Shown piece by piece: positions 17,698 through 30,913 of a stretch of DNA of 35,627 bases (position 1 is the first letter of the stretch; every line of letters begins with the position of its first letter). The notes beneath the pieces were generated by a model. The model was not told the DNA's origin. It did not search any database and saw only the letters and a program-made list of their open reading frames with translations. The DNA is taken from positions 1 to 35,627 of the forward strand of contig JAHFDT010000011.1 in the NCBI GenBank assembly GCA_023248875.1, in the 5' to 3' direction. The stretch is from Myxococcales bacterium (GTDB taxonomy: Bacteria; Myxococcota_A; Polyangia; Palsa-1104; SHYY01). A program made the position numbers and the translations under genes.

Positions 17698-18435
17698 ATG
17701 TTGACGATCGTCCTGGCGCTCCTTTCCGCTCTGGCCGTCACCGGCGCTCTGAAGCTCGCCTTCGTCCACTCGACTTGGAGTCTCTTGTTTCCCTTTCTCG
17801 TCACCCTGGTGGCGGTGGCGGTGCTGCTGATGCGGCGCATGAGCCAGAGATTGGAGCCGCTCATCGAAGAGACGCAGCGCCATCTCGCGGGCGGGCGTCG
17901 TGAGCTGGCGCTCAAGAGCCTGCGCGAGGGGCTGCGGTTCGGCCTGTGGCATCCTCTGGTGGCGGCGCAGCTGCGTGCCCAGATCGGTGAGCTGCAATAT
18001 GCGCTGGGCGATCTGGACCAGGCGGAGGCCGAGCTGGCGCAGTCGTCGCGCTGGCCCTGGACTTCGCGCGCGCTACTCGGCTGCGTCTACTTCAAGAAGC
18101 ACGAAACCGATAAGATGAAGCGCGCCTTCGAAGTCGCGGTCAAGGTCGGTGACAAGGAGGCGCTCTCCTGGACGCTCTACGCCTATTGCGAGCTCGCGCG
18201 CGGTGAGCGCGAGGCGGCGGTCAAGTTGCTCGAACGCGGCCTCAAAAAGTGCCCGGGCGATGCGCGGCTCCTTGCCAATCTGGAGCTCGCCAGGGAGGGC
18301 AAGAAGCTCAAGGTGGCGCCCTATGGGGATCGCTGGACCCGTTTTGGGCTCGATACCGAAGGGCCGGTGCTACCAAAGGCGGCGCGCGGCTTCGCGGTGA
18401 AGCCCGGTTTTCGTCAGCGAAGCCGCCGCAAGTAG
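17698..18435 (+). CDS. membrane-anchored TPR protein
   Basis: A 245-residue protein with two N-terminal membrane helices (about 2-20 and 27-45) followed by a cytoplasmic helical domain. The helical domain contains TPR-like repeats, for example ELALKSLREGLRFGLWHPLVAAQLRA, EAELAQSSRWPWTSRALLGCVYF and REAAVKLLERGLKKCPGDARLLANLELA. The last 40 residues are basic. Function and partners are unknown; such proteins generally organise complexes at the inner membrane. It is divergent from the HEAT/TPR gene across the region holding the 15-bp tandem repeat. Its stop codon abuts the stop of the convergent pentapeptide gene with no gap. Confidence 0.83.
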   Translation: MLTIVLALLSALAVTGALKLAFVHSTWSLLFPFLVTLVAVAVLLMRRMSQRLEPLIEETQRHLAGGRRELALKSLREGLRFGLWHPLVAAQLRAQIGELQYALGDLDQAEAELAQSSRWPWTSRALLGCVYFKKHETDKMKRAFEVAVKVGDKEALSWTLYAYCELARGEREAAVKLLERGLKKCPGDARLLANLELAREGKKLKVAPYGDRWTRFGLDTEGPVLPKAARGFAVKPGFRQRSRRK

Positions 18436-19230
18436 CTACGGTAGGCGGCTCTGCTCGAGCTCGGTACGTTCGAACCGGCGGCCGCCGATGGTAAGGCGCT
18501 GCCATCGCGCCTTGAGCAGTTCGCCCTTTTTGACGAGGGGCGCCAGCTCGCGCGTCGAGAGCAGGGTTCGCAGCGGCTTCCCCTCGTGGTCGAGCTCCTC
18601 CTCGCCGAGGAGGGCCTCCTCGAGGCTAGCACCGCCGAGGAGTGCCCCGGCGAGATCGGCCCCGCGCAGGTCCGCACCATCGAGGATCGCCTCGCACAAA
18701 TTGGCGTCATGAAGATCGGCAAAGGGCAGGGCAGCGCTCCGGAGATCGGCGCGCTGGAGATCGGCGCGGCCGAGCTCGATGCTCTCCATCACGGCGCCGC
18801 ATAGGCGTGCTCCCTGGAGATGGGCCCCTGCGAACTCGGCGCGGTTGCAGATCGTTTCGGAGAGATCTGCACCGCCGAGCTCTGCCCCCTCGAGAGTGGC
18901 TTCGGTAAAGTCAGCTCCCCGCAACAGAGCCCAGCGGAGATCTGCCTGCCGGGCCTGCGCCCAGCTGAGATTGGCGGCGACGAGCGAGGCGCTCTCGAGG
19001 CGGGTTTTTTCCAGGCAGGCCTTCCGTAGATCGGCGCGGTCGAGGTGGGCGCCGCGCAGGTCGGCCGCTGAAAGATCGATCTGGGGCAACTTGGCGCCCG
19101 AGAGATTCGTTGCGCCAAACTCAGCGCGAAAGAAGAAATGGGTGTGCTGAAGCTCCGCTTGAAGGCCGATGCCTGCGAGGGTGGACCAGCAGCGTTGCAG
19201 CGGCGACAGCTTCTCCCAATCCCAGGCCAT
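18436..19230 (-). CDS. pentapeptide-repeat protein
   Basis: A 264-residue protein whose residues about 35-210 are tandem pentapeptide repeats of the A(D/N)Lxx type (for example GADLRGADLAGALLGGASLEEALL), predicted to fold as a right-handed quadrilateral beta helix. Some family members mimic DNA and inhibit gyrase, but most have no known function and nothing here favours one. The N-terminal 30 residues and the basic C-terminal 50 residues are outside the repeat. No signal peptide is seen. Its ATG shares a base with the stop of the upstream lipoprotein gene (TAATG), so the two are probably translated in a coupled way. Confidence 0.9.
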   Translation of the reverse strand: MAWDWEKLSPLQRCWSTLAGIGLQAELQHTHFFFRAEFGATNLSGAKLPQIDLSAADLRGAHLDRADLRKACLEKTRLESASLVAANLSWAQARQADLRWALLRGADFTEATLEGAELGGADLSETICNRAEFAGAHLQGARLCGAVMESIELGRADLQRADLRSAALPFADLHDANLCEAILDGADLRGADLAGALLGGASLEEALLGEEELDHEGKPLRTLLSTRELAPLVKKGELLKARWQRLTIGGRRFERTELEQSRLP

Positions 19231-23819: not shown

Positions 23820-24701
23820 TTATAGCGGGTGTTTTTCGACGGCGGCACGAAAGCGCTCGATCGTTTCGCGCATCGCAGTGAACTTCATCTCTGTCGCGGC
23901 GCACAGCTTCGATGAATCGAGCACGGAACAGGGGGGGCGCAGGTCGAGAAAGCCAAGCTCCGCTTGAGTTTTGCAGATAATGGGAACGGGATCGCCGAAA
24001 TGGCGGAGGAACAGATCCGCCAGTTCGGCGCGGGTGAAGGATTCCGGGTTGGCGATGTGGTAGGTGCCGACGAGCTGCTGTTCGCAGGCCAATAGGAGGC
24101 CGAGCGCCGCGTCATCCACCAGGGTCGGTGCAAAACGCTGATCGGCGATGCAGCGCAGCGGCTGGCGCTTGTGCCACCAGCCATACCACTCCGAAAAGAG
24201 GTGCTTCTCGGTCGGCCGATCGCCCACCGTCTTGTCGAATCTGACCCGCAGCGAATTGGGTAGGTTCTCCTCGAGAAACTGCTCGGTTGCCGCTTTCTGT
24301 TCGCCGTAGGCATTGATGGGGCGGCGCGGCGCACTCTCCCGATAGCTCGCGTCAGTGCCGGAAAAGACGAAGCTTGAAGAGATGAAGACCGGTTGGGCGC
24401 CGAGCTCAGCCGCATCGACCAGCAACCGCTCGGTCGCTTCGACGTTGAGACGGCGGCTGGCGATCGGATCCTGGCGACACTGGTCGATCTGTTGGATGGC
24501 GGCGCAGGCGATGACCACGGCACTTTGGAACCAGCCGCGGTCGAAGGTTTCTCCCAGCCGCTGTTCCACTAGGTCGAAGTGGACCAGATCGTTGCGCTGA
24601 GCGCTGCGCTGGGTGCCGATCACCTCATGTCCGCGCGCCCGGGCGATCTCGATCAGATGTCCGCCGACAAAGCCCGATGCCCCGACGATGAGGATCTTCA
24701 T
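23820..24701 (-). CDS. RmlD-like NAD(P)-dependent sugar reductase/epimerase
   Basis: A 293-residue short-chain dehydrogenase of the extended type, resembling dTDP-4-dehydrorhamnose reductase. The nucleotide-binding loop is GASGFVG (7-13) and the catalytic Tyr132-x3-Lys136 lies in NAYGEQKAA, with a preceding serine run (ISSSFVFSG). By family it would reduce a 4-keto nucleotide sugar to a deoxysugar; the actual substrate here is unknown. Neighbours are a WbuC-like cupin, sugar methyltransferases and, on the opposite strand, heptose genes, so a modified heptose or hexose is the likely product. It overlaps the cupin gene by 4 bases (ATGA). Confidence 0.85.
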   Translation of the reverse strand: MKILIVGASGFVGGHLIEIARARGHEVIGTQRSAQRNDLVHFDLVEQRLGETFDRGWFQSAVVIACAAIQQIDQCRQDPIASRRLNVEATERLLVDAAELGAQPVFISSSFVFSGTDASYRESAPRRPINAYGEQKAATEQFLEENLPNSLRVRFDKTVGDRPTEKHLFSEWYGWWHKRQPLRCIADQRFAPTLVDDAALGLLLACEQQLVGTYHIANPESFTRAELADLFLRHFGDPVPIICKTQAELGFLDLRPPCSVLDSSKLCAATEMKFTAMRETIERFRAAVEKHPL

Positions 24702-25213
24702 GTTCCGTCCACTGTAGCGCGCAGTCGCGCCATGAAGGCCTGCACCGCCGCGGGGTCGCGCTCCTCGGGGGCCCAGGGCGGAAAAAGCGTGTCCTCGCGG
24801 CGGAATGGCCCGGTCGTCACCTCATGAAAAACCAGCACCTCGGAGCGAATCAGCAGCATGTGAAACAGTTCGGGGGCGATCCGGTAGTAGAAGAGTCCGC
24901 CCTCGCGGTATTCGCCGAGGCGCAGGGTCTCACGGATCACTCCGTCCGACTCGAACACCACCACGTCGGTACTCCCCTCCACGACGAACATCGATTCAGC
25001 CTTGCCCCGATGAGCATGAGGGCGGACGTAGGTATCACGCTCATGGACGATAAACATCTCGTGGAGCGGGTTTTCGACGCGATCGTGAGCGCACAGGCGC
25101 ATCCGACGGCGGGGCACGCGCGTGGCTTCGTGTTTCAGTAGGTCCACATCCCGAGCGGCCAGCTGCACCACCGGTCCCTCGGTGGAAAAGACCTCTTCCG
25201 AGAGGCGCTTCAT
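24698..25213 (-). CDS. cupin-fold metalloprotein, WbuC-like
   Basis: A 171-residue cupin resembling the WbuC family found in O-antigen and other surface-polysaccharide clusters. The metal motif TYVRPHAHRGKAESMFVVEG provides His66, His68 and Glu73, followed by the beta strand VVVFESDGV. The reaction is unknown; WbuC proteins are assumed to act on nucleotide sugars. I chose ATG 25213 because it overlaps the upstream methyltransferase stop as ATGA; the frame extends 18 codons upstream, but that extension has no ribosome site and lies inside the neighbour. Confidence 0.82.
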   Translation of the reverse strand: MKRLSEEVFSTEGPVVQLAARDVDLLKHEATRVPRRRMRLCAHDRVENPLHEMFIVHERDTYVRPHAHRGKAESMFVVEGSTDVVVFESDGVIRETLRLGEYREGGLFYYRIAPELFHMLLIRSEVLVFHEVTTGPFRREDTLFPPWAPEERDPAAVQAFMARLRATVDGT

Positions 25214-26415
25214 CCGTCCCAAGCGCTCTCTCCGATGGGGTGGCGTACCGCGCTGATGTAGTGGCAAGGGGTCCCCCAGTGGGAGCGTAAACAGTCCGCC
25301 GCCTGGTAGGCGCCCGCAAGCTCTTGTAGGTTAGACCCAGCGAGCGCGCGGTAGACCGCACCGAAATCGTCGCCCAGCGCCCGTAGTGTGGGATCCGCGG
25401 AGGTGCACAGGTAATCCTCGAGCGGTTGGGGATAGCTCACCTGCGTGATGTCGCGGGCGGAAGCGGCCCCTATCGAGTAGGCCGAGATCTGATCGGTCAG
25501 GGCGGCCACGGCGCCGATCACTGTTTCGGATGCGGGGCCACCGCTACTGGGGCGGCCCGTCAGGAAGAAGGGGAAAGCGCGACGGAATTCCGCCAGCAGC
25601 GCCTGGTGATGCTCGGCACGCGTGCGCGCAACATCCTTGTACCAGCGGTAGTGGTCCAGCAGCGACCAGCGCGGCGAGGTGGAATGGATCCCGCACCCGA
25701 GCTGGTCAAAAAGCGGGAAGAGCTCGAGATAGCTCCATAGGTAGGCTGCGGAGTAGAACGGGCAGACCAGCATGTCCTTCCACCAGGCCTCGAGCGGACG
25801 CGAAGCATTGACCTTCGCGAGATCCTCCCCGAACAGCCGCTCGGCCAGCGCCAGCGACTCAGGGCTTTCCGGATCGATGCCGCCGAGTTCGCAGGCGCGG
25901 AACAGCACCAGCCGCTTGGTCAGCTCAATGAAGCCGCCATAGCGGTCGTTGAATGTCATGGTCATCAGTCCGCCCGGCGTGATGAGTCGCACCAGCTTGC
26001 CGAGCAGCTCCTCGCGATTGGGCAGGGTGTAGAGAAAACCCTCAGCGACGACCAGAGAATAGGTTTCCGACGACGAGAAAGAGTTGAGGTCCTGATTGTG
26101 GAGTGCAGTAATTTGGCGCCCGAGATGGAAGTGTTCGAACAGCGTGCGCAGGCGCGGCAGCACCTGGTCGTTGGGTTCGACGAGGGTGAGGCGGGCGCCG
26201 GCGTGGGCCAAGACCAGCGCGTTCTCGCCCGAATTGCAGCCGAATTCGATCACCGGCTGCCCCTTGAGCAGCGCCAAGGGGATGCCGAGGTGGCGCTGAT
26301 ACAGATTGCGTCGCTTGGCCAGCTGCAGTTGCCACTTTTCATCGGTGTCGAGAGCGATTGGCACGGGGTTGAAGTGGCGGGTCTGATAGAACTCGAGCAG
26401 CGAATCGCTATCCAT
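25210..26415 (-). CDS. class I SAM-dependent methyltransferase
   Basis: A 401-residue protein with an N-terminal Rossmann methyltransferase domain: motif I VIEFGCNSGENA (55-66), acidic motif II VEPND (79-83) and post-motif segment LITPGGLMTMTFND. The C-terminal 200 residues are helical with aromatic clusters and are not recognised; they may bind the acceptor. The substrate is likely a sugar or glycan intermediate, judging from the surrounding genes. It overlaps the preceding methyltransferase gene by 8 bases and the following cupin gene by 4 bases, so all three should be co-expressed. Confidence 0.87.
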   Translation of the reverse strand: MDSDSLLEFYQTRHFNPVPIALDTDEKWQLQLAKRRNLYQRHLGIPLALLKGQPVIEFGCNSGENALVLAHAGARLTLVEPNDQVLPRLRTLFEHFHLGRQITALHNQDLNSFSSSETYSLVVAEGFLYTLPNREELLGKLVRLITPGGLMTMTFNDRYGGFIELTKRLVLFRACELGGIDPESPESLALAERLFGEDLAKVNASRPLEAWWKDMLVCPFYSAAYLWSYLELFPLFDQLGCGIHSTSPRWSLLDHYRWYKDVARTRAEHHQALLAEFRRAFPFFLTGRPSSGGPASETVIGAVAALTDQISAYSIGAASARDITQVSYPQPLEDYLCTSADPTLRALGDDFGAVYRALAGSNLQELAGAYQAADCLRSHWGTPCHYISAVRHPIGESAWDG

Positions 26416-27628
26416 GTCGGATCTCCAGATGGCGCGGGCTGGCGGGAAGAATCGAGAAGAACTGGCCTCCGCTCTCCAGGAAGGGGCGCTGCCGGTCGAT
26501 GACGGCCTCTTCGCGATCGGGGCGCATCGTCAGAAGACACCAGGTGATGCCGTGCTCGACCAGTGCACTCGACGGTAGAATCGGTAGGCGCGAGCCCGGC
26601 AGATAGAGCCCGATCTTTGGGGGGTGATCATCCGCGACAAACTCGATCAGATCGCCGAGGCCGTAGATCGAGAGAAAGGCGCAGGCGAGATGGCCGGCAC
26701 CGAGCAGTGCGACCTTGCCACCCGCCTGCCGGTGCTGGGAAAGGGCGGTACGAAGCGATTGGGCACGTTCCGCAAAATGCGCGGAGTAGCGTTCGGCACG
26801 CGCGCACTCCGCCGCGGCAGTCGCTGGGGCCAGGGTGCGGGGCGTACCGAGGCGGGCGATGGCCACCAGGGAGTTTTCCGAGGCGTAGGGAAATACGCTG
26901 CTCCACACCACGTCGAGCCCATAGCCATTGAGTGTACCGATCAGTGTGGCCATTGTGAAATAGAGGGTGTGCTGTTCCCAGATCATCAGATAGTCGAGGT
27001 CGGTGAGCGCCTGCTCGCTATCGGGAACTTCGAAAACCAGATAACCGCCGGGGGCGAGCAGCTGCTTTAGGGCGGTGATGAAACGCGTGGGGGCGAAGGT
27101 GTGCTCCAAGATTTGACGACCGATGATGAGATCGCACGGGCCCCATCGGGTTCGCCAGGCGGGCACACCTTCCGGTCGGATCCTCCCCTGGATGGTTTCG
27201 AGACCGGCCCCGGCGGACAGTTCGAGATCGGTGAGCGGATCCAGCCGATGGCTTCGCGAAAAGCCGCGCCGCTGCATCCGTGCGAGTGTGGAATCGTCCT
27301 TGTCCGTCAGACCGCATAGCCGCGATTCGGGCGAGAGGCCCGGTAGTTTCGCCAGGATTTCGGCCAGGTCATCGAGGTGCGCTTCCGGCTCCAGATAGGT
27401 GATCCAGTCGTAGCGTGAAACCAGCTCCTCCACTGGAGGTGGATTCACCAGGAAGAGGAGAGCGCAGCGGGTGCACTGGCCGAGCTGTAGCGGATAGAGT
27501 GGACCCGGGTGGGTGTCAAAAGCGAGGTAGCGATTGCTGATCGGTTGCGCGCCGAAATCGATCCGCCGTACGACGCTGGATGCCTGGCATACAGGGCAGA
27601 GGTCCATCACCAACGCAGAACGTCGCAT
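26408..27628 (-). CDS. zinc-ribbon C-methyltransferase-like protein (TylC3/NovU relatives)
   Basis: A roughly 406-residue protein with the three-part layout of sugar C-methyltransferases: an N-terminal zinc site (CPVC near residue 11 and CTRC about 40 residues later), a central methyltransferase fold (IIGRQILEHTFAPTRFITALKQLLAPGGYLVFEVPD), and a C-terminal nucleotide-fold region (GKVALLGAGHLACAFLSIYGL). The expected glycine-rich SAM loop is replaced by LCGLTDKDDSTLARM, and the usual HEH of the catalytic segment reads EQH. It may therefore be a divergent subfamily. The start is uncertain: ATG 27628 is used here; ATG 27607 or TTG 27640 are possible. It heads the minus-strand sugar operon. Confidence 0.85.
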   Translation of the reverse strand: MRRSALVMDLCPVCQASSVVRRIDFGAQPISNRYLAFDTHPGPLYPLQLGQCTRCALLFLVNPPPVEELVSRYDWITYLEPEAHLDDLAEILAKLPGLSPESRLCGLTDKDDSTLARMQRRGFSRSHRLDPLTDLELSAGAGLETIQGRIRPEGVPAWRTRWGPCDLIIGRQILEHTFAPTRFITALKQLLAPGGYLVFEVPDSEQALTDLDYLMIWEQHTLYFTMATLIGTLNGYGLDVVWSSVFPYASENSLVAIARLGTPRTLAPATAAAECARAERYSAHFAERAQSLRTALSQHRQAGGKVALLGAGHLACAFLSIYGLGDLIEFVADDHPPKIGLYLPGSRLPILPSSALVEHGITWCLLTMRPDREEAVIDRQRPFLESGGQFFSILPASPRHLEIRHG

Positions 27629-27840
27629 CTCGCCGCACAAGCGTCAAGAATCGGGAGTAGCGGCCGATTCAGCGATTACATGCTCCTGTTTCAACAGCTT
27701 CTACACGGGTCGGCCCTGGGATTGCACTGCTCTGCTCCGTGCGCCATGCCTAGCCTACGAACGCAGCGGAAGACGGGCACTTCGGCCCCCTCAGCCCCCA
27801 CGGCCGTCGCCAAATCTGGCAGCGCAGGCGAGGGGCGGAA
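27629..27840. promoter_or_regulatory. divergent promoter region between the two sugar operons
   Basis: A 212-base non-coding gap separates the minus-strand methyltransferase operon from the plus-strand gmhB operon, so promoters for both must lie in or near it. One weak sigma-54-like match, CGGCCCTGGGATTGCA at 27711-27726, has GG and GC 10 bases apart but misses three defined positions. No clear -35/-10 pair or terminator is visible. Confidence 0.45.
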
Positions 27841-28425
27841 ATGATGCCGGCCGTGTTTTTAGACCGCGATGGGGTGCTCGTCGAAGACCTGGGCCCGCTC
27901 TGTTCGATGGCCAGTGTGAGGGTGATCGAGGGAGTGCCGAGGGCGCTGCGTAGTTTGGCCCAGGCCGGCTATCGATTGATTGTCGTCACCAACCAGACCG
28001 TGGTGGCCCGGGGGCTACTTTCAGAGGCCGAAATGGCGCTACTCGAGGCGGAGATCGAAGCCCTGATCGAGCGCGCCGGCGCGCCGCAGTTCGATGGTTT
28101 TTACTATTGCCCGCACCACCCGGAGGCGACCGTTTCGCGCTACCGGATGAATTGTAGTTGCCGCAAACCCCGCGCGGGATTGCTGCTCCGGGCGGGGCAG
28201 GATCGCCAGATCGATCTCGGCAGCAGCTTCGTGGTCGGCGACCGTATGAGCGATGTTGCGGCGGGGCTGCGCGCCGGTTGCCGCACCGTGCTGGTGCGGA
28301 GCGGGCGGCATGGGGATCCGCCGATCGTCAGCCCCGAGCCACTCGATGACGAGGTCCAGCCGCACCACATCTGCGCGGATCTCAGCGCGGCGGCCGACTG
28401 GATCCTGGAAGGGAGGAGCGCATGA
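27841..28425 (+). CDS. gmhB: D-glycero-D-manno-heptose 1,7-bisphosphate phosphatase-like HAD enzyme
   Basis: A 194-residue HAD-superfamily phosphatase of the histidinol-phosphatase/GmhB type that removes the 7-phosphate from heptose 1,7-bisphosphate. Catalytic Asp8 and Asp10 lie in FLDRDGVL, motif II in VVTNQ, the zinc-binding loop in CPHHPE plus CSCRKP, and motif IV in VVGDRMSD. Two ATG codons sit in tandem at 27841 and 27844. Its stop overlaps the next gene as ATGA. The neighbouring gmhA and nucleotidyltransferase genes support a heptose pathway over histidine synthesis. Confidence 0.92.
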   Translation: MMPAVFLDRDGVLVEDLGPLCSMASVRVIEGVPRALRSLAQAGYRLIVVTNQTVVARGLLSEAEMALLEAEIEALIERAGAPQFDGFYYCPHHPEATVSRYRMNCSCRKPRAGLLLRAGQDRQIDLGSSFVVGDRMSDVAAGLRAGCRTVLVRSGRHGDPPIVSPEPLDDEVQPHHICADLSAAADWILEGRSA

Positions 28426-29180
28426 AAGCGATAGTCTTGTGCGCTGGCTATGGGACGCGTTTGGGCTCGCTGACGCGCGAGGTGCCGAAGCCCATGCTCG
28501 GGATCGGCGATTCGCCACTGCTCGAGCACACCCTGCGCCACATCGCCGAGCATGGCTTTCGCGAGATGGTCGTCAACCTGCACTTCCAGGCCGAACAGAT
28601 CAGCTCCTATTTCGGCGACGGGTCGCGCTTTGGCATCCGGCTCCACTACGTCTACGAGCCGGAGCTGCTCGGGACGGCGGGAGCGGTGAAAAACATCGCC
28701 AGCTTTCTGCGTGGCAGCGAGCCCTTTCTGGTCCACTACGGCGACATTCTCACCAACCAGGATTTCACCGCCATGCTGGCCCATCACCGAGAACGTCGGG
28801 CTTTGGCGACGCTGCTGCTCCACCAGCGACAGAAGTCGAACAGCGTGGTGCACCTCGACTACCAGGGGCGCGTCTTGGCCTTCTGGGAGCGGCCGAGCGA
28901 AGTCCCGCTCGAGATCTCGAAGCCCTATGTTTTTTCCGGCGTCTGCCTTTGTGAGCCCGAGTTCATTGACCGGATTCCGGAGGGCCCCTGCGATCTCCCC
29001 CGCGATCTGTTCTCCCAAATGGCGGCGGGCGCACCCATCTATGGCTATGCGCTCACCGGCTATCGCTGCGCCATCGATTCGCCCCAGCGTCTCGAGGAGG
29101 CGCGACAGGCGGTGGCCGATGGAAAATTTCAACCCTATCGACGGAGCCAAGACCATGTTGCAGCCAGCGCGCGAATTTAG
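28422..29180 (+). CDS. sugar-phosphate nucleotidyltransferase, heptose-1-phosphate guanylyltransferase-like
   Basis: A 252-residue nucleotidyltransferase that joins a nucleotide to a sugar 1-phosphate. The signature LCAGYGTRLGSLTREVPKPML near the N-terminus, FLVHYGDILTN (metal-binding Asp) and the single-domain length fit the family of HddC and mannose-1-phosphate guanylyltransferases. Location between gmhB and gmhA favours D-glycero-D-manno-heptose 1-phosphate as substrate, giving an activated heptose, but GTP versus another nucleotide cannot be read from the sequence. The 3' end overlaps gmhA by 26 bases. Confidence 0.88.
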   Translation: MKAIVLCAGYGTRLGSLTREVPKPMLGIGDSPLLEHTLRHIAEHGFREMVVNLHFQAEQISSYFGDGSRFGIRLHYVYEPELLGTAGAVKNIASFLRGSEPFLVHYGDILTNQDFTAMLAHHRERRALATLLLHQRQKSNSVVHLDYQGRVLAFWERPSEVPLEISKPYVFSGVCLCEPEFIDRIPEGPCDLPRDLFSQMAAGAPIYGYALTGYRCAIDSPQRLEEARQAVADGKFQPYRRSQDHVAASARI

Positions 29181-29757
29181 TGAACGCTACCTCAAGGCCG
29201 CGGCCGACTGCTTGAAGCAGCTGTCGGCGGGCGATATTGCCAAGGTCTCACGTGTGTTGCTCGATGCCTACGAGCGCGGAGCCCAGGTGTTCATCATTGG
29301 CAATGGGGGTAGCGCCGCCCTCGCGTCTCACTTCGCCTGCGACTTGGCAAAGACCGTCCTCGGCAAAAACATCGAGAGCACGAGCAAGCGCTTTCGCGCC
29401 ATTTCGCTGTGCGATAACGTGGCGGTTATGACTGCGTGGGCCAATGATGTCGCCTACGAACGCATTTTCTCGGAGCAGCTGAAGGCCTTGGCCCAGCCGG
29501 GCGATGTGCTGCTCGTCATCACCGGCAGCGGCAATTCGCCCAATGTTCTCGAAGCGGTGCGGATGGCGAAATCACTCGGCCTGCATACGATCGGCTGGTT
29601 GGGCTTCGACGGCGGCAAGGCGCGCGCGCAGCTGGACGACTACATTCTTGTGCCGGTGCACGACTACGGGCTCGTCGAGGCGGGCCACGATGTCCTGGCC
29701 CACCTGATTACCGCGTGGCTGATGGCCGCCGTGGCGGCGGAGCGCAAGGCGGCGTAG
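29155..29757 (+). CDS. gmhA: sedoheptulose 7-phosphate isomerase-like SIS-domain protein
   Basis: A 200-residue SIS-domain isomerase that converts sedoheptulose 7-phosphate to D-glycero-D-manno-heptose 7-phosphate, the first step in heptose synthesis. Phosphosugar-binding signature FIIGNGGSAALASHFACDL and the second phosphate loop VITGSGNSPNVLEA are intact. The start at 29155 has a GGAG about 9 bases upstream and gives family length; the frame runs much further back but only as an out-of-frame reading of the nucleotidyltransferase gene. It is the last gene of the heptose operon and ends 22 bases before the left arm of an inverted-repeat element. Confidence 0.92.
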   Translation: MLQPAREFSERYLKAAADCLKQLSAGDIAKVSRVLLDAYERGAQVFIIGNGGSAALASHFACDLAKTVLGKNIESTSKRFRAISLCDNVAVMTAWANDVAYERIFSEQLKALAQPGDVLLVITGSGNSPNVLEAVRMAKSLGLHTIGWLGFDGGKARAQLDDYILVPVHDYGLVEAGHDVLAHLITAWLMAAVAAERKAA

Positions 29758-29779
29758 GTGGATGACAGTAGTTGACCTC

Positions 29780-29954
29780 ACAGGGTTGCCAGAAATCTGC
29801 TGCGCGGCCCGATCGCTGCGGGGGGCTTGCTCCCATTCGATGGTCTTGGGGGGAGGTCACTGCGCTCCACTGCTCAAATACCTCAGTATTCTGCGCTGCG
29901 GTGCTCGCTCCGCCTTGCGCTCGAGCCGCTCGCGACGATTTCTGGCAACCCTGT
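29780..29954. mobile_element. 175-bp MITE-like element with perfect 18-bp terminal inverted repeats
   Basis: The left arm ACAGGGTTGCCAGAAATC (29780-29797) is the exact reverse complement of the right arm at 29937-29954. The core between them is about 139 bases. The trinucleotide TCA flanks both outer ends (29778-29780 and 29954-29956), consistent with a 3-base target duplication if the repeat proper starts at C29781. The core contains the palindrome AATACCTCAGTATT (29877-29890). No transposase is encoded. It occupies nearly the whole gap between gmhA and the aldo/keto reductase, whose stop codon is the right-hand TCA. A non-autonomous transposable element or an extragenic hairpin repeat are both possible. 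Confidence 0.65.
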
Positions 29955-30913
29955 CAGGCGCGGTAGAAATTGCGATTCCAGCGGTGTTGGAGCGCACGCG
30001 TACGTTCGTCGGCCGTAAGTCTGCCGGTCGCCGCCGCCGCGACATTCATTTCTACCTGATCGATCGTGCGCATGCCGGGAATCACCGACGAAACAGCTGG
30101 GTGGCCGAGCACAAAACCGAGCGCGGCTTGGGCCAGAGTGCGATTCGGCCGCTCTAACCAGCGCAGCTGCTCGACGCGGTCGATGGTCTCACCGAGTCGG
30201 CGACCCGCGAAGTAGCGCTGGCGAAAATCGCCCGGCGGAAACTGCGTGTCCCGGCGTAGTTTTCCCGTGAGCGAACCTTCATCGAGGGGTACGCGTCCGA
30301 GTACACCGACGCCTCGCTCGAGGCAGAGGGGATAGAGCTCGTCTTCAGGGGACTGGTCGAATAGGTTGTGGATCACCTGGACCACATCGACGCGCCCTTG
30401 GCGGATCACCTCCAGCGCGCTGGTCGGCTCGTGGTCGTTGATCGAGATGCCGACGAAACGGATCTTCCCGTGGCGCTTGAGCTGCTCCATCGCTTCCCAC
30501 CACTCGTCGCGATCGGCCCAGGCGGGCGCCCAGACGTGTAGCTGCAGAAGATCGATCGTCTCGAGACCAAGATTCCTCAGACTCTGCTCGCAGGAAGAGA
30601 GGATGTGCTGGGAGGGAAACACCTCTTCGAGCGGAGCATCATGGCGCGCGGGCCACTGGTAGTTCATGGGGGGAATCTTGGTGCAGACGAACAGTCCGCG
30701 GTGACGCTGGGCCACCTGTCCAACGAGGCGCTCGGAGCGCCCTTCGCCATAGACCAGCGCGGTGTCGACGAGATTGACACCCAGCTCGATGGCCCGTTCG
30801 AGGGCGCGCAGCGAGGTGGCATCGTCGGCGCCGCCCCACATCGAGCCGCCGATCGCCCAGGCACCGAAGCCCACTTCGGAGACGAGGAGGCCAGTCCTAC
30901 CGAGCGGTCGCAT
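29954..30913 (-). CDS. aldo/keto reductase
   Basis: A 319-residue NADPH-dependent TIM-barrel reductase of the YdjG/IolS-like type. The catalytic tetrad is Asp50, Tyr55, Lys79 and His126 (LVDTALVYG, CTKIPP, LQLHVW), with the ending NRNFY common in the family. It reduces an aldehyde or ketone; the substrate is unknown. ATG 30913 is preferred; GTG 30919, sharing a base with the upstream stop, is an alternative. It is the last of four same-strand genes (MEMO-like, small unknown, lipoprotein, reductase). Its stop lies at the edge of the inverted-repeat element. Confidence 0.93.
   Translation of the reverse strand: MRPLGRTGLLVSEVGFGAWAIGGSMWGGADDATSLRALERAIELGVNLVDTALVYGEGRSERLVGQVAQRHRGLFVCTKIPPMNYQWPARHDAPLEEVFPSQHILSSCEQSLRNLGLETIDLLQLHVWAPAWADRDEWWEAMEQLKRHGKIRFVGISINDHEPTSALEVIRQGRVDVVQVIHNLFDQSPEDELYPLCLERGVGVLGRVPLDEGSLTGKLRRDTQFPPGDFRQRYFAGRRLGETIDRVEQLRWLERPNRTLAQAALGFVLGHPAVSSVIPGMRTIDQVEMNVAAAATGRLTADERTRALQHRWNRNFYRA

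What the first reader, a model, noticed from the sequence alone, without database searches (positions are those of the whole stretch)
23820..29757. Divergent heptose locus without a heptose kinase
gmhA, gmhB and a heptose-phosphate-type nucleotidyltransferase form one operon, opposite an operon with a C-methyltransferase-like protein, a second methyltransferase, a WbuC-type cupin and an RmlD-like reductase. By established pathway knowledge, activated heptose also needs a kinase (HddA for the GDP route, HldE for ADP), which is absent here. The co-located modifying enzymes suggest a methylated or deoxygenated heptose, whose structure is undescribed for this locus.
Basis: partly seen in the sequence, partly recalled or inferred. 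Interest (0 to 1): 0.55.

Follow-up and report, generated by a model that had tools for sequence, protein, structure and literature searches.

The report
Heptose pathway split over two places
Three genes here are the missing middle of a bacterial seven-carbon-sugar pathway whose kinase lies elsewhere in the same genome, and a separate enzyme appears to have replaced that kinase's worn-out activating half.

Summary
The genes are as described: GmhB, a PF00483 sugar-phosphate nucleotidyltransferase (NTase) and GmhA on +, opposite a C-methyltransferase-like protein, a methyltransferase, a WbuC cupin and an RmlD-like reductase. No kinase lies in the window, but the genome (4.0 Mb, 88% complete) has one: a reversed HldE (degenerate adenylyltransferase-like half, then heptose-7-phosphate kinase) on contig C149, in SDR1-kinase-SDR2-transketolase-HAD-APH. 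In four genomes of the class the order is SDR1-kinase-GmhB-NTase-GmhA-SDR2, so the window trio is the displaced middle of that cluster. It is complementary, not redundant: GmhA and GmhB are single-copy here.

Among 36 such kinases, all 12 with the separate NTase have a broken or absent adenylyltransferase half; all 24 without it keep the motif. The switch occurred at least three times on supported branches, too few for a significant tree-corrected test. I read this as displacement of the adenylyltransferase by an unrelated enzyme. The opposite operon probably belongs to the same pathway: relatives carry counterparts beside the kinase cluster. The C-methyltransferase-like protein has lost its SAM motif I. 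The nearest studied cluster holds Coxiella CBU0678, whose function was called unknown in 2018. Nucleotide, anomer and final sugar remain unproved.

The parts
23820..24701 (-). RmlD-like NDP-sugar reductase (SDR; YxxxK and GxxGxxG visible)
   Evidence: PF04321 6.8e-41; TIGR01214 113.2 bits, under its 224.05 cut-off; 42% match beside the kinase cluster in G015
24698..25213 (-). WbuC-family cupin
   Evidence: TIGR04366 133.8 bits, over cut-off 42; 34% match in G015 cluster
25210..26415 (-). SAM-dependent methyltransferase with intact motif I and an unassigned C-terminal half
   Evidence: PF13489 7.1e-10; homologues only in G032 and G040 besides G000 among 235 phylum genomes, both near the kinase cluster
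26408..27607 (-). C-methyltransferase-like protein that has lost SAM motif I
   Evidence: PF08421, PF13489, PF08484; motif comparison; model pTM 0.85, best PDB match MtmC 4rv9
27841..28425 (+). GmhB, heptose-1,7-bisphosphate 7-phosphatase
   Evidence: PRK08942 140.3 bits (cut-off 178), TIGR00213 133.2 (149.6), alpha-anomer model NF050049 only 74.8 (250); only copy in the genome
28422..29180 (+). stand-alone sugar-1-phosphate nucleotidyltransferase (PF00483), proposed to replace the adenylyltransferase half of HldE
   Evidence: PF00483 2.2e-32; NF052502 man-1-P GTase 147.8, HddC 79.8 bits; 42-52% orthologues in 9 of 15 class genomes with the kinase
29119..29757 (+). GmhA, sedoheptulose-7-phosphate isomerase (alternative ATG at 29155)
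   Evidence: PF13580 1.3e-18, TIGR00441 107.9 bits (cut-off 209.45); only copy in the genome
29776..29958 (.). 183-base stretch bounded by 22-nt inverted repeats (95% complementary), directly after gmhA; possible mobile-element relic or long hairpin
   Evidence: not in the other loci held

Best explanation
The window trio GmhB-NTase-GmhA is the displaced middle of a cluster that makes a nucleotide-activated heptose for a surface glycan. Shown from sequence: the matching kinase is a reversed HldE on contig C149 of the same genome, in SDR1-kinase-SDR2-TkN-TkC-HAD-APH, and relatives carry SDR1-kinase-GmhB-NTase-GmhA-SDR2 in one run. Inferred chemistry: sedoheptulose-7-phosphate (helped by the transketolase pair) -> GmhA -> heptose-7-phosphate -> reversed-HldE kinase -> heptose-1,7-bisphosphate -> GmhB -> heptose-1-phosphate -> stand-alone NTase -> NDP-heptose. 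The NTase has displaced the kinase's own adenylyltransferase half, which is degenerate here and absent in some relatives. The SDRs, RmlD-like reductase, methyltransferase, WbuC and perhaps DegT enzymes then modify the NDP-heptose (inferred). Likelihoods: kinase partner about 0.9; NTase displacing the AT half about 0.75; a modified heptose as final product about 0.6.
For: Own-genome scans: three PfkB kinases, of which only C149:16407-17942 is HldE-like (rfaE_dom_I 126.8 bits, PRK11316 129.4; N-terminal rfaE_dom_II 37.6); PDB best match is heptose-7-phosphate kinase 4e84 for the C-terminal part; catalytic GAGD kept. Synteny: 16 of 144 class genomes have the kinase; of the other 15, 8 carry GmhB, NTase and GmhA within the stretch fetched, 4 of them (G026, G091, G107, G135) in the exact order SDR1-kinase-GmhB-NTase-GmhA-SDR2. 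In C149 the kinase runs straight into SDR2 with the trio absent. Composition agrees: tetranucleotide correlation C149 vs window 18-35.6 kb is 0.825, the highest of 14 comparisons. Displacement: 36 kinase rows, NTase with AT motif GxFD..HxGH broken or absent 12 of 12; without NTase and motif intact 24 of 24; the 18 proteins of 16 later-found genomes fitted a rule set on the first batch. Opposite operon: G015 has WbuC, CMT and RmlD matches beside the cluster; G032 and G040 have the MT, an RmlD match and a weak CMT match about 3-6 kb beyond TkC.
Against: No biochemistry. GmhA, GmhB, kinase and NTase all score under the curated NCBIfam cut-offs of their named equivalogs, so substrates are by analogy. 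Only 3 independent switches on supported branches (5 on the best tree), sign test p 0.25; the Fisher value 8e-10 ignores kinship. No new NTase-bearing genome came in the second batch, so that direction was not retested. The L027 NTase is only 28% identical and was counted because it adjoins the kinase; G040 has an in-frame stop in its kinase. The genome is a fragmented bin, 88% complete. In 3 of 15 class genomes none of the trio was found near the kinase.
Confidence: 0.72

Rival explanations
1. The window trio and the C149 cluster are separate systems: the trio activates some other sugar phosphate (hexose or pentose), and C149 makes its own NDP-heptose.
For: They lie on different contigs; all window enzymes score under equivalog cut-offs; the NTase is closer to mannose-1-P guanylyltransferase and G1P uridylyltransferase than to HddC.
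Against: C149 has no GmhA, GmhB or NTase and the genome holds one GmhA and one GmhB; the trio is contiguous with the C149 kinase orthologue in 8 of 15 relatives and in L008 the kinase, GmhB and NTase adjoin.
Confidence: 0.12
2. The kinase's N-terminal half is still an active adenylyltransferase with divergent motifs, and the NTase serves a different branch of the pathway.
For: The half is still present in G000, G015, G091, G107 and G090, and HxGH survives in G040 and G032.
Against: The half is absent altogether in G026, G073, G135 and L008, which all keep the NTase; motif intact in 24 of 24 without the NTase.
Confidence: 0.12
3. A pathway without a dedicated kinase, or with an unrelated one: heptose-7-phosphate is phosphorylated by C123 or C117 PfkB kinases or by the APH-like protein.
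For: Two other PfkB kinases exist and an APH-family protein lies in C149.
Against: C123 scores as ribokinase-like and C117 as a general sugar kinase; the HldE-like one has conserved synteny with the trio.
Confidence: 0.04

Closest known systems
Reversed-HldE O-antigen cluster of Coxiella burnetii (CBU0678, with GmhA CBU0674 and SDR CBU0676)
   Same: Reversed domain order, HldE-like kinase, phosphoheptose isomerase and epimerases nearby (PMC5843353, passages). A gammaproteobacterial MAG (L027) has reversed HldE-NTase-SDR2-GmhA-SDR-TkN-TkC-HAD-APH.
   Different: The window genome splits it over two places, its AT half is degenerate, and GmhB, a methyltransferase and a motif-less CMT are added. 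CBU0678 sequence was not compared here.
ADP-heptose pathway (GmhA, HldE, GmhB, HldD)
   Same: Isomerase, HldE-type kinase domain, phosphatase scoring nearer the beta-type models.
   Different: Domain order reversed, AT motifs lost, nucleotide transfer assigned to a PF00483 enzyme; no GT9 heptosyltransferase in the genome.
GDP-heptose pathway (GmhA, HddA, GmhB, HddC) of Campylobacter
   Same: A PF00483-type NTase does the last step and SDRs modify the NDP-heptose (PMC10680097, abstract and section 14).
   Different: Kinase is HldE-like, not HddA; NTase scores 79.8 bits with HddC against a cut-off of 300.
NDP-sugar 3-C-methyltransferases (MtmC, TcaB9, KijD1)
   Same: Zinc-binding, central and C-terminal domains; predicted fold matches 4rv9 and 5t6b.
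   Different: SAM motif I lost; HEH/YEH-type motif reads EQH.

Membership tests
ADP-heptose pathway with bifunctional HldE | HldE-type heptose-7-phosphate kinase domain | tested here: inconclusive
   rfaE_dom_I 126.8 bits at 9.4e-37, best family, but under cut-off 345; PDB best 4e84; GAGD kept
ADP-heptose pathway with bifunctional HldE | working adenylyltransferase half (GxFD..HxGH, SST) | tested here: not met
   HxGH position reads EVAD in G000; SST motif lost
ADP-heptose pathway with bifunctional HldE | GT9 heptosyltransferases for LPS core | tested here: not met
   0 matches to PF01075 in the genome, 88% complete
GDP-heptose pathway | HddA GHMP-type kinase | tested here: not met
   GHMP hits only on C141; two of three are mevalonate kinase and MvaD, third not scanned
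GDP-heptose pathway | HddC guanylyltransferase | tested here: not met
   NF049965 79.8 bits, cut-off 300
GmhA | TIGR00441 equivalog score | tested here: not met
   107.9 bits against 209.45; best family all the same, SIS_2 domain over cut-off
GmhB | TIGR00213 / PRK08942 score; DxD and Cys/His zinc loop | tested here: inconclusive
   133.2 of 149.6 and 140.3 of 178 bits; FLDRDG and CPH..CSC seen in the sequence; motif meaning recalled
Reversed-HldE cluster (CBU0678 type) | AT-like half before kinase half | tested here: met
   rfaE_dom_II at 41-136, rfaE_dom_I at 208-521
Reversed-HldE cluster (CBU0678 type) | sequence orthology to CBU0678 | not tested
   the Coxiella protein was not fetched
NDP-sugar C-methyltransferase | SAM motif I (E..SNDG) | tested here: not met
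   window GLTDKDDS and G015 GASHKDAS, against SNDG-like in the 20 other covered rows, 1 row without coverage dropped
WbuC cupin | TIGR04366 score | tested here: met
   133.8 bits, cut-off 42
RmlD (dTDP-4-dehydrorhamnose reductase) | TIGR01214 equivalog score | tested here: not met
   113.2 bits, cut-off 224.05; RmlD-like only

The most novel reading that the evidence does not exclude
A third route to activated heptose: an HldE-type kinase feeds a PF00483-fold nucleotidyltransferase that has repeatedly displaced the fused adenylyltransferase, switching the nucleotide (perhaps to GDP) and possibly the anomer, so that SDRs, a methyltransferase and a motif-less C-methyltransferase relative can build an undescribed branched or amino heptose. 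The same logic would assign a role to the CBU0678 type of cluster.
Probability: 0.4. Interest if true: 0.68.

Novelty: new variant of a known kind. Interest (0 to 1): 0.5.

Why it matters
Activated heptoses build LPS cores, capsules and antibiotics, and ADP-, CDP- and UDP-heptoses are immune agonists (PMC11461863, part 1 of 2 read). Published routes keep the last step either in the HldE/HldC adenylyltransferase fold or in HddC with the HddA kinase. A kinase of one route feeding an enzyme type of the other, with the old half decaying in step, would be a clear case of enzyme displacement inside one pathway. It also gives a testable role to reversed HldE proteins, one of which (CBU0678) was called of unknown function in 2018.

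Tried and rejected
Considered and rejected: HddA elsewhere in the genome; LPS-core heptose as the use (no GT9); a redundant complete cluster (single GmhA and GmhB); a cross-organism bin mix for C149 (favours one organism, though the short locus piece 23.8-29.8 kb alone is not decisive: its correlation with C149, 0.569, is lower than with G026, 0.61, and L008, 0.57). Tried with little gain: promoter and terminator scans (0 found); literature searches for reversed HldE or an HldE/HddC hybrid, which showed none in the held library; searches on Coxiella O-antigen terms. The model and fold search of the CMT confirmed the fold but do not settle whether it binds SAM. NTase donor (GTP, UTP, CTP, ATP) could not be decided by sequence: best NCBIfam model is mannose-1-P guanylyltransferase, best PDB match a UTP-glucose-1-P uridylyltransferase.

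Rows dropped: L018 left out of the 36-row table and second tree (separate kinase and AT genes, long branch; one search used it as outgroup). In some searches NTase matches under 40% identity away from the cluster were counted as absent (the best such in an intact-AT genome: G141, 36%, 1.9e-33); L027 at 28% was counted present because it adjoins the kinase; without it the count is 11 of 11.

Full report
WHAT IS THERE. The plus operon is GmhB (27841-28425), a PF00483 nucleotidyltransferase (28422-29180) and GmhA (about 29119-29757, overlapping). The minus operon is a C-methyltransferase-like protein (26408-27607), a SAM methyltransferase (25210-26415), a WbuC cupin (24698-25213) and an RmlD-like reductase (23820-24701). 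Upstream and downstream genes are unrelated (CutA and glycogen phosphorylase on one side, an aldo-keto reductase on the other), so this is a small island, not an O-antigen region.

THE KINASE. The genome holding the window has 4.0 Mb in 304 contigs and is 88% complete. It has three PfkB kinases. One is ribokinase-like, one a general sugar kinase, and the third, on C149, is HldE-like with its halves reversed: an rfaE_dom_II-like part at 41-136 and an rfaE_dom_I kinase part at 208-521 of the open frame. Its closest solved relative is a heptose-7-phosphate kinase (4e84). The three GHMP hits lie together on C141; the two I scanned are mevalonate kinase and diphosphomevalonate decarboxylase, so there is no HddA candidate. 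GmhA and GmhB occur once each, in the window.

THE SPLIT CLUSTER. C149 reads: alcohol dehydrogenase and two DegT aminotransferases on minus; on plus a glycosyltransferase (PF13524), SDR1, reversed HldE, SDR2, transketolase N and C halves, HAD, APH. In the class, 16 of 144 genomes have the kinase at E <= 1e-20. Among the other 15, 8 have GmhB, NTase and GmhA within the fetched stretch; 4 have GmhA without the NTase there (G117, G090, G123, G140, the last with GmhB as well); 3 have none of the three (G131, G053, G141). Four genomes (G026, G091, G107, G135) read exactly SDR1-kinase-GmhB-NTase-GmhA-SDR2. The window trio is what is missing between kinase and SDR2 on C149. On the kinase tree G000 sits among genomes with the joined arrangement, so the split looks derived (inference). 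G090 has its NTase orthologue (51%) on another contig.

ENZYME DISPLACEMENT. In G026, G073, G135 and L008 the kinase has no adenylyltransferase half; in G000, G015, G091, G107 and G090 the half lacks HxGH; in G040 and G032 HxGH survives but the preceding FD is FH and SST is lost. All of these have the PF00483 NTase. The 5 class genomes without it that have long enough contigs keep both motifs. I then searched 377 genomes of the phylum: 27 had the kinase, 16 of them new. None of the 16 has an NTase orthologue (one 33% hit at E <= 1e-25), and all 18 of their kinases keep GxFD..HxGH; 17 of the 18 also keep an SST or SSS motif, the exception being one of two copies in G161. In all, 36 rows: 12 of 12 with NTase broken or lacking the half, 24 of 24 without it intact. 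Fisher's p of 8e-10 ignores kinship; on the tree there are 3 independent pairs on starred branches (5 on the best tree), all in the expected direction, sign test p 0.25. The association is strong in count and modest in independent events.

THE OPPOSITE OPERON. The C-methyltransferase-like protein has only one close relative among 144 class genomes, in G015, where it stands with WbuC, a second, canonical C-methyltransferase and an RmlD-like gene directly beside the kinase cluster. The methyltransferase has relatives in 2 others of 235 phylum genomes, G032 and G040, both about 3.4 kb past the transketolase of the same kind of cluster and next to an RmlD-like gene and a further methyltransferase with weak CMT similarity. 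So counterparts of both halves of the window locus recur together in independent lineages, which supports one pathway. The window CMT and its G015 relative have lost SAM motif I, which the 20 other covered rows keep; the G015 one also lacks about 40 residues of the SAM-binding core. The model keeps the MtmC/KijD1 fold. It may act without SAM, or be a partner subunit (inference).

KNOWN COUNTERPARTS. Passages of PMC5843353 describe CBU0678 of Coxiella burnetii as HldE with reversed domains, needed for full-length LPS, function unknown; phosphoheptose isomerase CBU0674 and epimerase CBU0676 are named near it. A gammaproteobacterial MAG (L027) carries reversed HldE-NTase-SDR2-GmhA-SDR-TkN-TkC-HAD-APH, with the same final TkN-TkC-HAD-APH run as C149. 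Campylobacter makes GDP-heptose with HddA and HddC (PMC10680097, section 14). ADP-, CDP- and UDP-heptose enzymes are summarised in PMC11461863; the Science paper itself was not read. The searches showed no paper describing the displacement reported here in the held library; most subscription papers are not held.

LIMITS. No activity was measured. Substrates rest on family resemblance under curated cut-offs. Nucleotide, anomer and final sugar are open. The genome is a fragmented bin.

Noticed in passing
window 29776-29958: A 183-base stretch with 22-nt inverted repeats (95% complementary, 139 nt between) directly after gmhA, perhaps a mobile-element relic at the edge of the moved trio.
   Followed up: partly
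window 26408-27607 and L045:17564-18679: A C-methyltransferase relative that keeps its zinc and C-terminal domains but lost SAM motif I, in two distant genera.
   Followed up: partly
L100:5859-7292 and 17722-19218: Genome G161 carries two reversed HldE genes on one contig, one of them on a very long branch.
   Followed up: no
L076:8874-9902: The reversed-HldE kinase frame of G040 holds an in-frame stop, whereas its near-identical sister G032 has none.
   Followed up: no
L042:1708-1953 and 2136-2831: Repeated 123-base and 72-base units in the genes at the start of C149, probably repeat-domain surface proteins.
   Followed up: no
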